Program-made: the position numbers and the translations under genes
Shown: positions 7,563 to 46,513 of the stretch, in pieces
How the letters are laid out: each line of letters begins with the position of its first letter
Position numbering within the stretch: the first letter of the stretch is position 1
NCBI RefSeq assembly: GCF_022814725.1
Contig: NZ_CP093442.1
Span: 2,666,001 to 2,730,000, forward strand
Direction: 5' to 3'
DNA: 64,000 nt
Source of the DNA: Bdellovibrio reynosensis
GTDB lineage: Bacteria; Bdellovibrionota; Bdellovibrionia; Bdellovibrionales; Bdellovibrionaceae
The notes under the pieces: generated by a model
Told to the model about the DNA's origin: nothing
The model's input: only the letters and a program-made list of their open reading frames with translations
Databases searched by the model: none

Positions 7563-7691
7563 ATGGCTTCTAAAACTAAAAAAACTGAATACATCCGTGA
7601 AAAGAAAAAATCTACTAGCGGTAAAAAGCGTAAAGCTGCAGTTCGTACTAAAGGTACAACTAAATCAGCAAAAGTTCTTTTCAAAGACTAG
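7563..7691 (+). CDS. Small lysine-rich basic protein (42 aa)
   Basis: An ORF of 42 codons starting MASKTKKTEYIREKKK and ending SAKVLFKD. It has 13 Lys and 3 Arg and essentially no hydrophobic core. The ribosome site AGGAG at 7553-7557 sits an ideal 5 nt before the ATG, strong support for translation. It follows the outer-membrane gene by 36 bp and is followed at once by structured repeat copy 1 and a terminator. The composition suggests nucleic-acid or ribosome binding, like histone-H1-type tails or small ribosomal proteins, but no known family is recognised. Confidence 0.8.
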   Translation: MASKTKKTEYIREKKKSTSGKKRKAAVRTKGTTKSAKVLFKD

Positions 7692-7699
7692 TCGGCTCG

Positions 7700-7813
7700 T
7701 CGATAAGCAGGCATCTGACTGCGTTGTCGGCACTTAGCCTTCGCTCCGACGTACCTTGCAGGTACGCCTGCGCTGCGGCTAAGGACCTCCGCCTTGCATA
7801 TGCCTACTTCTCG
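7700..7813. repeat. Dispersed structured repeat, copy 1
   Basis: A long imperfect hairpin with nested stems. Four sequence blocks are shared with the copy at 45001-45123: CTGACTGCGTTGTCGG (7715-7730), TCGCTCCGACGTA (7741-7753), TACGCCTGCGCTG (7763-7775) and CCTCCGCCTTGCAT (7786-7799). Between them lie copy-specific paired arms: TTAGCC with GGCTAA, and the apex GTACC/GGTAC around TTGCA. Outer arms also pair (GCAGGCAT with ATGCCTAC, with G-U pairs). It sits between the 42-aa gene and a bidirectional terminator, with convergent genes on both sides. Function unknown; a REP-like mobile hairpin or a 3'-UTR structured RNA are both possible. Confidence 0.85.
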
Positions 7814-7835
7814 CCAAGCCTTGATGCTTTGCGAT

Positions 7836-7889: not shown

Positions 7890-9263
7890 TTAGTTTTTGC
7901 TGACGCGAAGTAGACCGCCGGCTTCTTGGGCTCCGCCTTTAAGGTCCCAAACGAATGGAAGTTCAACCCAACCTTCTTGGCCTGGATAGAAGCGCCATTT
8001 TTTTAATGCCGTTAAAGTTTTCGCATCAAGATTTCTAAAGCCCGTTGATTTCATCATTTTGAATTTTGAAACGTAACCTTCTTTATTGATGTAAGCAACG
8101 AAGGCTACTGCACCTTTATCTCCGCGCAGACGTTCTTGCGTATCGTATTGAGGACGGGGGTTACCCGGCATTTGGCGAAGCTGTTCTAAACTTCTGACTC
8201 CTGATGGAACTCCTGAAACTTGTGTTCCTGAGCCAGTAGATCCGTTGTTGCCAGCGCCAGAACCCGCTTTAGTTCCATAGCCTTCACCTTGTCCACCCAT
8301 GCCCGCTCTTTGGGCAGCCGCTTTTCTATTTGCTGCAGCTAAGGCAGCAGCACGTTGAGCAGCCAAAGCATTCGCACGATCACTGGCTTCAGCAGCAGCG
8401 ATGGCTTTTGCATTTTTTTGGCGAACTGAGTTTTGCAAGTTTGCTAAACGATTTGCTTCGGCCTTATTTTCTTCATCAAGCGCGCCCAAGGTATCTTCTT
8501 GGTCTTCTTCTAACGCCGCAGCCATTGCTGCCATGGACTGTCTTTCGTTTTCAACAGTGGCTCTGTGGGATGAATCAATATGATCGAAATCTGGATTTAG
8601 ATCTTCATCAAGATTGGATTCAAGTTTTGCGTTTGCGAGTTCCGCTTGATCTAATTCTGGTGCATCGATGTCATCAATCGTCATCGGTACAGCTTTAAAA
8701 TTAGTTTTAGGAGCCATACTGCGAGCGCCACCTGCTTTTGTCACTGCAACTGCTTTTGCTGCGGTTTTAGTAGCTTTTGCAGGAGCCGATTTAGCTTTTA
8801 CTGATTTAGCCGGGTTCGCCGCAGCTTTTGCTACAACAACGTCACCCGGTCCGCCAACGTCATCTAATTTTTCAACAACGGGAGTTTCTAATTTCGCCGG
8901 AGTTCCACCTTGTGTTGGCGGAACATAAGCGCCACGCGCCTGACGGATTTGTGGAACGTCTTCGATTTCAATTTCGATTGTTTCAGTTTTAACTTGTTCA
9001 ACTAGCGGCACGCTTATTAAAGCGATTAGCAAAAACGCAACGGCGTGGAAAGTTGCAGAGATTGTCATGAAGCGAGAAGATTTATTTTGTTCTGGCTCTT
9101 GATGGGCCATTAGCCAGGTATTGAAATCAATGGCATTGTTGCCTGACTCGCTTAGATTTTTTGACTTCTCAGAGGGTACGAAATCGGCATTAGGCAGTTT
9201 ATAGTCGAAAAAATTCAACTGGCCGTCGTTCTGTGATTTTTCATTATCGAGTTTAAAACCCAT
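7890..9263 (-). CDS. TonB-like energy-transducer family protein
   Basis: A 457-residue inner-membrane protein. A cytoplasmic N-terminus of about 65 residues precedes one transmembrane helix (about 67-88, TFHAVAFLLIALISVPLV). A periplasmic Pro/Ala/Lys-rich linker follows with several Ala-rich stretches, then coiled-coil-like Ala/Glu repeats (about 235-315). The C-terminal domain of about 80 residues (NKEGYVSKFKMMKSTGFRNLDAKTLTALKKWRFYPG) is a TonB C-terminal fold. It probably couples the inner-membrane proton gradient or a motor to an outer-membrane partner. The ATG at 9261-9263 is chosen because AGAGGAG lies correctly before it; a start 18 bp upstream lacks one. No exbB/exbD genes are adjacent. 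Confidence 0.85.
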   Translation of the reverse strand: MGFKLDNEKSQNDGQLNFFDYKLPNADFVPSEKSKNLSESGNNAIDFNTWLMAHQEPEQNKSSRFMTISATFHAVAFLLIALISVPLVEQVKTETIEIEIEDVPQIRQARGAYVPPTQGGTPAKLETPVVEKLDDVGGPGDVVVAKAAANPAKSVKAKSAPAKATKTAAKAVAVTKAGGARSMAPKTNFKAVPMTIDDIDAPELDQAELANAKLESNLDEDLNPDFDHIDSSHRATVENERQSMAAMAAALEEDQEDTLGALDEENKAEANRLANLQNSVRQKNAKAIAAAEASDRANALAAQRAAALAAANRKAAAQRAGMGGQGEGYGTKAGSGAGNNGSTGSGTQVSGVPSGVRSLEQLRQMPGNPRPQYDTQERLRGDKGAVAFVAYINKEGYVSKFKMMKSTGFRNLDAKTLTALKKWRFYPGQEGWVELPFVWDLKGGAQEAGGLLRVSKN

Positions 9264-9339
9264 AAATACTCCTCTGGTCATAGAGGAGCATTATCAATTC
9301 CTAGGCCACTAAAAAGCGGCCCTAATAGGCATAAAATGC

Positions 9340-44440: not shown

Positions 44441-45004
44441 ATGTTAAAAACACTACTTTTTGTTTTTGCGTTTAGTTCTTTTGCGCACGCCCAGTATGTT
44501 GGCTTCGCAAAAGGCAATCAGCTCTCTGCAACTCCAGTTCAAGGAAGAGTCCACGTTGTTTGCAACGGTTTTAACGGAACCGGCGCTGCTTTGTATTCCT
44601 GCCATGACGTAATTTTGAACCCCGCAGCCTATGATCATTTCATCGGCCCTAAAGACAGCCGTGCTGATGGCGTTATTCTAATTGTTAAACATGAAGACGG
44701 CTCTGTACGCGATCGCGCTTCTTCGTATGATGGTGTGCGCGGAAAAAGCCATGATGCTTTCAACTTGTGGATTTCAACTCTTTTCCAAAAACCCATTTTG
44801 GAAGCAGGGGTAAACACCGTTCAATATCGTATTTTCTCTGGCAAAATCTTGCTTACTGAAGGTCGCTTTCAAGCGGTCGTGACAAGAGGAGCGGCGCGCA
44901 CCTGTCCGAACGCTCAATACAACTCGACAGACAACAACGACTGCAACAGCCAATACTCAATTTGTCAGCGATACTTCGAAGAATACAACAACTGCCACCC
45001 GTAG
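44441..45004 (+). CDS. Exported Cys-rich protein of unknown function
   Basis: A 187-residue protein with signal peptide MLKTLLFVFAFSSFAHAQ. Cysteines VVCNGFNG, YSCHD and a C-terminal cluster (RTCPNAQ, DCNSQ, ICQRY, NCHP) suggest disulfides in the periplasm or outside the cell. No family is recognised. A strong AGAGGGGG site precedes the ATG. The stop codon at 45002-45004 lies inside the left arm of structured repeat copy 2, so the mRNA end folds into that hairpin. Confidence 0.8.
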   Translation: MLKTLLFVFAFSSFAHAQYVGFAKGNQLSATPVQGRVHVVCNGFNGTGAALYSCHDVILNPAAYDHFIGPKDSRADGVILIVKHEDGSVRDRASSYDGVRGKSHDAFNLWISTLFQKPILEAGVNTVQYRIFSGKILLTEGRFQAVVTRGAARTCPNAQYNSTDNNDCNSQYSICQRYFEEYNNCHP

Positions 45005-45123
45005 CGATGAAAAAGGGCAAGCTGACTGCGTTGTCGGGGTTTGTCCTCGCTCCGACGTAGCTCTGCTACGCCTGCGCTGTGGGAAACCCCTCCGCCTTGC
45101 ATCTTGCCCTTTTTGATCGCTAC
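45001..45123. repeat. Dispersed structured repeat, copy 2
   Basis: Same four blocks as copy 1: CTGACTGCGTTGTCGG (45022-45037), TCGCTCCGACGTA (45047-45059), TACGCCTGCGCTG (45067-45079) and CCTCCGCCTTGCAT (45089-45102). The inner stem is now GGTTT with AAACC, the apex GTAGC with GCTAC, and the outer 21-bp arms (45001-45021 with 45103-45123) are complementary with one mismatch. So the stems differ from copy 1 but still pair. The left arm overlaps the stop codon of the Cys-rich gene, and a terminator follows 22 bp later. Confidence 0.88.
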
Positions 45124-45199: not shown

Positions 45200-46513
45200 T
45201 TAGTTAGCTTCGTCTTTTAAAGAACCAGCTGGAACTTCTTTGATTTTTACTGACTTGTTCAACAACGCGATCACTTTTTCTTCTGTGATCATGTAAGTCA
45301 AACGGCTAGCTTGCTCTGGACGACCGTAGAATTCACGGATGCGTGATTCTTCAATACCAGTTTGTTGAGCGTACTCTGCAAATTTCGCATCAAGATCTTC
45401 TTTCTTAGCGAATAGATCGTGTTTTTTAGCGATCGCATCCACTAGGAAAGATGATTGGATCATTTCAGCGGCAGTTTTTTCGAAATCGCTGTCCCATTTA
45501 TCAAGGTAAGAAGCGAAATCGTTTGGACCCATGCCTTGTTCAGTCATGCGTTTTTTGAAGTCTTCAACCAATGAAGCTTTTTGTTCTTTCATCAAAGAAG
45601 GTGGAACTTCAACTGGGTTTTCTTTTACCAACGCTTTAAGAAGGCGGTTTTTGAAAGCATCTTCGATGCGTTTAGTTTCAGTTTGCGATAAATCTTCTTC
45701 GATAGATTTTTTCAAAGCATCAAGGTCTTTTGGACCGCCCAAAGTAGCGATGAATTCATCGTTTAGCTCTGGCAATACTTTTGCTTTGATTTCTTTCAAA
45801 GTAACTTTGAAGTCTACTGGTTTACCAGCAAGGTCAGCAGAGTGGTATGGATCTGGGAATTTCAAAGAAAGAGTTTTTGTATCGCCAGCTTTCATACCAA
45901 CGATGCCATCTTCAAAACCTTCGATGAATTGTTTTGCACCAAGCTCTAGATGGTGATCAGTGCCTGAACCGTTTTCAAGAGGTTTACCGTCGATGAATCC
46001 TTCAAAATCAACAACAGCAACATCGCCCAATTTCGCTGCGCGAGCTTCAGTCACAGTTTCAAAAGTAGCACGTGAAGCGCGGATGTTTTCCAACACTTGC
46101 TCTACTTTTTTAGCGTCGAATTCAAACTTCTCTTTTTCAACTTCAAGACCTTCGTATTTCTTCAAGTTGATTTCTGGACGAACATCAAATGCTGCAGAGA
46201 AAGAAAAATCTTTGTTTTCTGTCGGGTCAGCAAATTCAAATTCTGGGTAGCTGATAGGCTCAAGTTTGTGTTCAGTTAAAGCTTCAGCGTAGTGTTTTTG
46301 GATCAAATCTTGAACAACGTCTTGTTTTACACGGTCGCCGTACAAGCTTTTAACAGTAGCCAAAGGCGCTTTACCTTTACGGAAGCCTTTGATTGTTACG
46401 TCTTTTTGAATACCAGTGAAGATTTTTTGGAAAGCAGATTGTACAGCTGCTGCAGGAATCTCAACATTCAGTTTGCGGGAAAGATTAGAGACTTTTTCTA
46501 CATTCGATTTCAT
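45200..46513 (-). CDS. tig: Trigger factor (ribosome-associated chaperone)
   Basis: A 437-residue peptidyl-prolyl isomerase and chaperone that binds nascent chains at the ribosome exit. The ribosome-binding domain carries GFRKGKAP (about 41-48); the FKBP-like domain is about 150-235 (GDVAVVDFEGFIDGKPLENG); the helical C-terminal arms complete the standard length. A clear sigma-70 promoter lies upstream and AGGAGA precedes the ATG. In many bacteria tig neighbours clpP-clpX; here clpPX is about 10 kb away. Divergent from the ArsA-like operon. Confidence 0.97.
   Translation of the reverse strand: MKSNVEKVSNLSRKLNVEIPAAAVQSAFQKIFTGIQKDVTIKGFRKGKAPLATVKSLYGDRVKQDVVQDLIQKHYAEALTEHKLEPISYPEFEFADPTENKDFSFSAAFDVRPEINLKKYEGLEVEKEKFEFDAKKVEQVLENIRASRATFETVTEARAAKLGDVAVVDFEGFIDGKPLENGSGTDHHLELGAKQFIEGFEDGIVGMKAGDTKTLSLKFPDPYHSADLAGKPVDFKVTLKEIKAKVLPELNDEFIATLGGPKDLDALKKSIEEDLSQTETKRIEDAFKNRLLKALVKENPVEVPPSLMKEQKASLVEDFKKRMTEQGMGPNDFASYLDKWDSDFEKTAAEMIQSSFLVDAIAKKHDLFAKKEDLDAKFAEYAQQTGIEESRIREFYGRPEQASRLTYMITEEKVIALLNKSVKIKEVPAGSLKDEAN

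What the first reader, a model, noticed from the sequence alone, without database searches (positions are those of the whole stretch)
7700..7813. Dispersed hairpin element with covarying stems and four conserved blocks
Copies at 7700-7813 and 45001-45123 share four blocks of 13-16 nt in the same order and nearly the same spacing, while each arm between blocks differs yet still base-pairs within its own copy (TTAGCC/GGCTAA versus GGTTT/AAACC; GTACC/GGTAC versus GTAGC/GCTAC; outer arms likewise). Compensatory change points to selection on structure, that is a functional RNA or a structured DNA target, rather than a plain REP repeat. I know no named family with these blocks.
Basis: seen in the sequence. 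Interest (0 to 1): 0.7.

Follow-up and report, generated by a model that had tools for sequence, protein, structure and literature searches.

The report
Dispersed long-hairpin element after stop codons
Dozens of copies of a ~125-base hairpin sit just behind genes in this Bdellovibrio-like genome and in many unrelated bacterial phyla, with fixed mismatched blocks, freely varying but always matching arms and, in this lineage, an orientation locked to DNA replication; it looks like a widespread, barely described mobile DNA hairpin whose mobiliser is unknown.

Summary
Confirmed and larger than reported. The window holds exactly two copies (7694-7820 and 45001-45123, +). A covariance model finds about 78 in the 3.58-Mb chromosome and 1-45 in 20 of 23 congeners; the same modules occur in many phyla. 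Arms covary massively (446 double-sided changes; covariation score 0.49 vs 0.17 shuffled) with almost no G.U/G.T intermediates, favouring a DNA-level hairpin over RNA. Copies are mobile: no congener has an element at either orthologous place. They land within a few bases of the stop codon of a co-oriented gene, leaving the protein essentially intact. In Bdellovibrio, orientation follows the replichore (69/78 here; 28/28 and 43/43 in two relatives) more strictly than genes do (61%); this is weaker in Geothermobacter and absent in two other lineages. No Rfam family, RAYT dependence, attC or REP tags, or plasmid/phage copies. The only prior notice found is a 2009 'predicted short RNA' family in Geobacter metallireducens sharing the central palindrome. 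Most likely a non-autonomous single-strand-DNA hairpin element of the REP kind with unknown mobiliser; an mRNA 3'-end role is not excluded.

The parts
7694..7820 (+). copy 1 of the hairpin element (class I outer module GGCTCGTCGATAAG/CTTCTCGCCAAGCC)
   Evidence: cmsearch R1 133.3 bits, E 1.4e-37; fold z -3.1
7715..7730 (+). copy 1, block 1 CTGACTGCGTTGTCGG
   Evidence: exact pattern match
7740..7753 (+). copy 1, block 2 (TTCGCTCCGACGTA)
7787..7799 (+). copy 1, block 4 CTCCGCCTTGCAT
7563..7691 (+). small basic ORF (42 aa, MASKTKKTEYIREKKKS...KVLFKD) whose TAG stop lies just before copy 1; visible in about 20 congeners, always without the element
   Evidence: sequence; orthologous loci
7890..9281 (-). 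convergent neighbour of copy 1 (TonB C-terminal domain protein)
45001..45123 (+). copy 2 of the hairpin element (class II outer module GATGAAAA/TTTTGATC)
   Evidence: cmsearch R1 112.2 bits, E 2.9e-31; fold z -7.2
45022..45037 (+). copy 2, block 1 CTGACTGCGTTGTCGG
45046..45059 (+). copy 2, block 2 CTCGCTCCGACGTA
45090..45102 (+). copy 2, block 4 CTCCGCCTTGCAT
44441..45004 (+). gene upstream of copy 2; its TAG stop is supplied inside the first bases of the element (..NNCHP*, homologues end ..NCH*, NCQ*, YCR*)
45200..46513 (-). convergent neighbour of copy 2 (trigger factor), used to read the orthologous loci

Best explanation
A non-autonomous, dispersed DNA element of ~125 bp (plus a short 3' tail) that folds into one long hairpin: variable, complementary arm pairs separated by conserved, imperfectly paired modules that a trans-acting protein presumably reads on the folded single strand. 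Copies spread to new sites right behind stop codons (shown by filled and empty alleles) and exchange whole interiors with each other at the conserved blocks (inferred from mosaic orthologous copies). In Bdellovibrio the top strand lies almost always on the lagging-strand template; the simplest reading is that insertion or retention uses single-stranded DNA at the replication fork (inferred). The mobilising protein is not identified and does not appear to be the Pfam Y1/RAYT family.
For: Many copies and massive covariation on held-out copies. Hardly any one-sided wobble changes, as expected for DNA pairing. Species-specific insertions with empty orthologous sites. Stop-codon landing with the protein end preserved, also in other phyla. 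Replichore polarity with ori/ter confirmed by GC skew, and 51/53 vs 61% for host genes; weaker in Geothermobacter, 16/20 by GC skew although coding is balanced. Interior swapping with conserved outer arms at the same locus (L145 vs L146, L066 vs L069). Tandem units with different arms. Cross-phylum modules.
Against: No mobiliser found, and no gene family stands out next to copies. Replication polarity is absent in Peptococcaceae, whose copies look recent, and in one deltaproteobacterium, so it is not intrinsic to all members. Practically none on plasmids, phages or viral contigs, odd for a mobile element. The better-folding strand is the bottom one, not the one exposed on the lagging template. 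Some orthologous copies are 98-100% identical while flanks are 90-94%, which hints at a function beyond selfish spread.
Confidence: 0.5

Rival explanations
1. A functional RNA element of mRNA 3' ends (stability hairpin, sRNA source or giant terminator) placed directly behind stop codons.
For: Upstream gene co-oriented in 53 of 75 copies, mostly starting within about 15 nt of the stop. In several filled alleles it stands in place of the native terminator (sets D and G). 47/78 copies have a T4+ run on the 3' side. Orthologous copies more conserved than flanks. Geobacter authors called it a predicted short RNA (PMC2700814).
Against: 22 of 75 copies are antisense to the upstream gene; replication orientation is kept better than gene orientation; wobble is almost absent, and what there is favours the antisense strand; 26/78 copies belong to the TTCTC outer class without a U tract; both window copies are followed by a separate native terminator.
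Confidence: 0.22
2. A replication- or chromosome-polarity element: a host protein reads the oriented hairpins as signposts (fork restart, segregation), and selection fixes their orientation.
For: Near-perfect replichore polarity in several complete Bdellovibrio genomes; high constraint at some orthologous loci.
Against: Copy number swings from 0 to about 78 between congeners; polarity missing in other lineages with the same element.
Confidence: 0.12
3. A MITE moved by a DDE transposase; the outer stem is the terminal inverted repeat and a YTAR/CTAG-like target explains the stop-codon landing.
For: Near-identical Peptococcaceae copies have CTAG at both ends with inverted ends CTAGGAG/CTCCTAG, and there orientation is not polar. 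Set I shows GTAA/CTAA flanks.
Against: Ends vary freely between copies in one genome, which a sequence-specific transposase should not tolerate. No general direct repeat in Bdellovibrio junctions. TAA/TAG is not enriched where no co-oriented gene precedes (8/23).
Confidence: 0.12

Closest known systems
Multicopy 'predicted short RNA elements' (e.g. Gmet_R1005) of Geobacter metallireducens (Aklujkar et al. 2009, PMC2700814, Additional file 4)
   Same: Central palindrome GRCGTAGCGCTGCTACGCC, intergenic, 24 copies, one shared at an orthologous place with G. sulfurreducens; the identical palindrome occurs in eight copies of this genome and in a Geobacteraceae locus.
   Different: Described there only as a predicted RNA of unknown function; the main text I could read gives no arm covariation, replication polarity, stop-codon rule or cross-phylum spread. 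The supplementary alignment could not be opened, so identity beyond the palindrome is inferred.
REP / REPIN / BIME repeats mobilised by RAYT (TnpA-REP) (PMC3733652, PMC6006769)
   Same: Dispersed extragenic imperfect palindromes behind genes, non-autonomous, sometimes clustered.
   Different: Several times longer with nested modules; GT(A/G)G or CGTC foot in only 2 and 3 of 78; copy number independent of Y1 transposases.
IS200/IS605 family single-strand transposition (IS608, ISDra2; PMC6006769)
   Same: Hairpin recognition and targeting of the lagging-strand template.
   Different: No tnpA nearby, no small subterminal hairpins recognised, polarity not universal.
Integron attC sites (from my own knowledge)
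   Same: Long imperfect hairpins with fixed mismatches and variable arms, placed right behind stop codons.
   Different: R-box consensus in only 1/78; dispersed, not in cassette arrays.

Membership tests
REP/RAYT (GTAG or CGTC REPs) | GT(A/G)G or CGTC foot at one end of a 20-40 bp palindrome | tested here: not met
   2/78 and 3/78 copies; element ~125 bp
REP/RAYT (GTAG or CGTC REPs) | cognate Y1 transposase in the genome, flanked by the repeat | tested here: not met
   No Pfam Y1_Tnp match in G013 (45 copies), G017 (19) or G008 (6); a match in G004 (0 copies). 1 of 29 Y1 loci has an element within about 1.5 kb.
IS200/IS605-type ssDNA element | orientation follows the lagging-strand template | tested here: inconclusive
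   Very strong in Bdellovibrio, moderate in Geothermobacter, absent in two others
IS200/IS605-type ssDNA element | TnpA cuts and joins the folded single strand | not testable with these tools
   needs biochemistry
MITE of a DDE transposon | fixed terminal inverted repeats and target-site duplication | tested here: inconclusive
   CTAG on both sides in Peptococcaceae copies; not seen generally in Bdellovibrio junctions
Integron attC | RYYYAAC / GTTRRRY R boxes | tested here: not met
   1/78 copies
Known structured RNA (Rfam 15) | covariance-model match at gathering score | tested here: not met
   none in window; permissive matches all far below gathering scores, the better ones on the neighbouring terminators
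Intrinsic transcription terminator | G+C stem followed by a T tract | tested here: inconclusive
   T4+ on the 3' side in 47/78 copies; 26/78 belong to the TTCTC class. Native terminators remain downstream of both window copies.
Geobacter Gmet_R1005 family | central palindrome GRCGTAGCGCTGCTACGCC in a multicopy intergenic element | tested here: met
   exact in eight own copies and in L159, L179, L210
Geobacter Gmet_R1005 family | alignment over the whole element with the published 24 copies | not tested

The most novel reading that the evidence does not exclude
A cross-phylum class of single-strand-DNA hairpin elements with a conserved mismatch code, moved by an unrecognised enzyme that couples to the replication fork in some hosts and lands precisely behind stop codons, while the arms diversify through DNA-level copying of one arm from the other.
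Probability: 0.3. Interest if true: 0.85.

Novelty: new variant of a known kind. Interest (0 to 1): 0.62.

Why it matters
It would be one of the more widely shared dispersed sequences among bacteria with no known mobiliser or role, and its exact stop-codon landing and replication polarity are directly testable. It bears on how intergenic hairpins arise, how palindromes stay perfect while changing sequence, and how single-stranded DNA at forks is used by mobile DNA.

Tried and rejected
Rfam at gathering score and at permissive E-values: nothing convincing over the element. RAYT/Y1 mobiliser: no co-occurrence and no adjacency; the single Y1 gene of this genome has its own repeats. A shared gene beside copies in other phyla: no family stood out in an all-against-all ORF comparison. 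Plasmid and phage collections: no match. Viral contigs: 1 and 4 contigs. Gene orientation as the cause of polarity: rejected (51/53 vs 61%). YTAR target as the cause of stop-codon landing in Bdellovibrio: not supported. A regular expression used to flag elements at orthologous loci missed even the known copy 2, so absence was re-tested with the covariance model. A first count of wobble by regular expression caught too few copies and was replaced. A kinship-centred search on the Geobacteraceae locus was not accepted.

Full report
OBSERVATION. Both reported copies exist with their four blocks in the same order and fold into one long hairpin, better than shuffles (z -3.1 and -7.2). With a covariance model built from 30 copies the window holds two elements, 7694-7820 and 45001-45123, both on + (the third, weak match is copy 1 read on the other strand, as expected for a hairpin).

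CENSUS. The window is part of a 3.58-Mb single-contig genome. The model finds 80 matches at E <= 0.1 there, 78 of them at E < 1e-6, and 1-45 copies in 20 of 23 congeners, with none in G003, G004 and G014, two of which are highly fragmented. A few rows, such as Ferruginibacter and Treponema, lack the full module set and look like chance. Eight such genomes hold 20-148 copies each with a second model.

STRUCTURE. On 91 further matches (81 distinct) 96.1% of cells pair, 446 cells have changes on both sides (130 in shuffles), and the covariation score is 0.491 against 0.173 shuffled and at most 0.129 when slid. The modules between the arms are imperfectly paired in a fixed way. A structured RNA would be expected to show many G.U steps; here, after dropping fixed or ambiguous columns, I count about 16 top-strand G.T and 42 top-strand A.C (that is, bottom-strand G.T) among more than 2,000 pairs. 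This favours pairing at the DNA level, with a mild preference for the bottom strand, which also folds better in 164/177 copies with RNA and 159/177 with DNA parameters. I had no RNA family of the same genome as a wobble yardstick, so this step is inference.

MOBILITY. Neighbour genes of each window copy were used to fetch the orthologous places in 23 congeners. The model finds an element in none of the congener loci, only in the own genome. The same upstream gene is recognisable beside copy 1's place in about 20 congeners and beside copy 2's place in eight; elsewhere the neighbourhood differs. In copy 1 the element follows ..TTCAAAGACTAG directly; in copy 2 the protein gains one residue (..NNCHP*) and the stop lies inside the element. 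In three closely related genomes filled and empty alleles can be compared: the protein end is kept to within a residue, the element begins at or within a few bases of the stop, and in sets D and G it stands in place of the native terminator hairpin. My junctions are accurate to a few bases only.

STOP-CODON LANDING. Of 75 own copies with a called upstream gene, 53 are co-oriented with it and most of these start within about 15 nt of its stop. These are simple ORF calls that miss small genes, for example the 42-aa gene before copy 1. In other phyla 18 of 23 copies with a co-oriented upstream gene start within about 16-25 nt of its stop, 17 of them within 16.

REPLICATION POLARITY. dnaA lies at 2.535 Mb and GC skew of sampled stretches changes sign there and at the opposite point. 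Orientation agrees with the replichore in 69 of 78 copies (p ~1e-12 against 50%); one of the nine exceptions lies 3 kb from the computed terminus. In G006 and G013, whose contigs switch orientation once near the middle, all 28 and 43 listed copies agree; G002 and G023 have a few exceptions. Genes near own copies are co-oriented with replication only 178:114; co-oriented upstream genes that carry an element are leading-strand in 51/53 (p 2.5e-9). Other lineages differ: Geothermobacter 16/20 by GC skew with balanced coding, Peptococcaceae 11/20, one deltaproteobacterium 11/20 and 9/18 same-contig pairs. So polarity is lineage-dependent.

TURNOVER. At orthologous loci, copies are either 98-100% identical while upstream coding sequence is 90-94% and downstream spacer 58-86% identical, or keep their outer arms (0.90-0.93) and differ in the interior (0.74-0.83). 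The first suggests constraint, the second exchange of the contiguous interior between copies at blocks 1 and 4. G013 carries tandem units with different arms.

WHAT IT IS NOT. Not an Rfam family; not RAYT-dependent at Pfam sensitivity; no attC R boxes and no REP foot; no match in plasmid and phage records and almost none in viral contigs.

PRIOR WORK. Aklujkar et al. [quoted passage not shown] metallireducens with the central palindrome GRCGTAGCGCTGCTACGCC, also in G. sulfurreducens, G. uraniireducens and Desulfotalea psychrophila. That palindrome is exact in eight copies here and in L159, L179 and L210. No other paper in the library holds the sequences I searched in a relevant context.

VERDICT. 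A real, widespread hairpin element that still moves. Best reading: a non-autonomous single-strand-DNA hairpin element of the REP kind with an unknown mobiliser (0.5). An mRNA 3'-end role is the main rival (0.22).

Noticed in passing
L031:1135-1809 (genome about 1.9584-1.9590 Mb): The only Y1/HUH transposase of this genome sits between two flagellin genes, flanked by its own repeat (GTGTAGACCCAAAAAAGAAGCAGGCACCT) and next to a long GAGTGAT tandem repeat.
   Followed up: partly
L143, L147, L087, L338, L022 flanks: A second dispersed repeat, AAAAGGTRCCTGCTTACTTTT and variants, often lies close beside the hairpin element.
   Followed up: no
L344, inside the element: One orthologous copy carries a further small hairpin (CTACACCTCAAAATGCCCCTGGCATTTTGTG) inserted in block 4.
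   Followed up: no
L151, L158, L162, L166, L170, L183, L187, L195, L202, L226: Peptococcaceae BRH_c4a has a recent burst of near-identical copies with a ~70-nt conserved tail and CTAG at both ends.
   Followed up: partly
L289 and L290, beside the trigger factor gene: Y1-transposase-like genes next to AAAGTGTGTCCGTACC repeats, looking like separate TIR-flanked elements.
   Followed up: no
window:7563-7691: A 42-residue, very basic protein conserved in most of the genus, without a Pfam family.
   Followed up: partly
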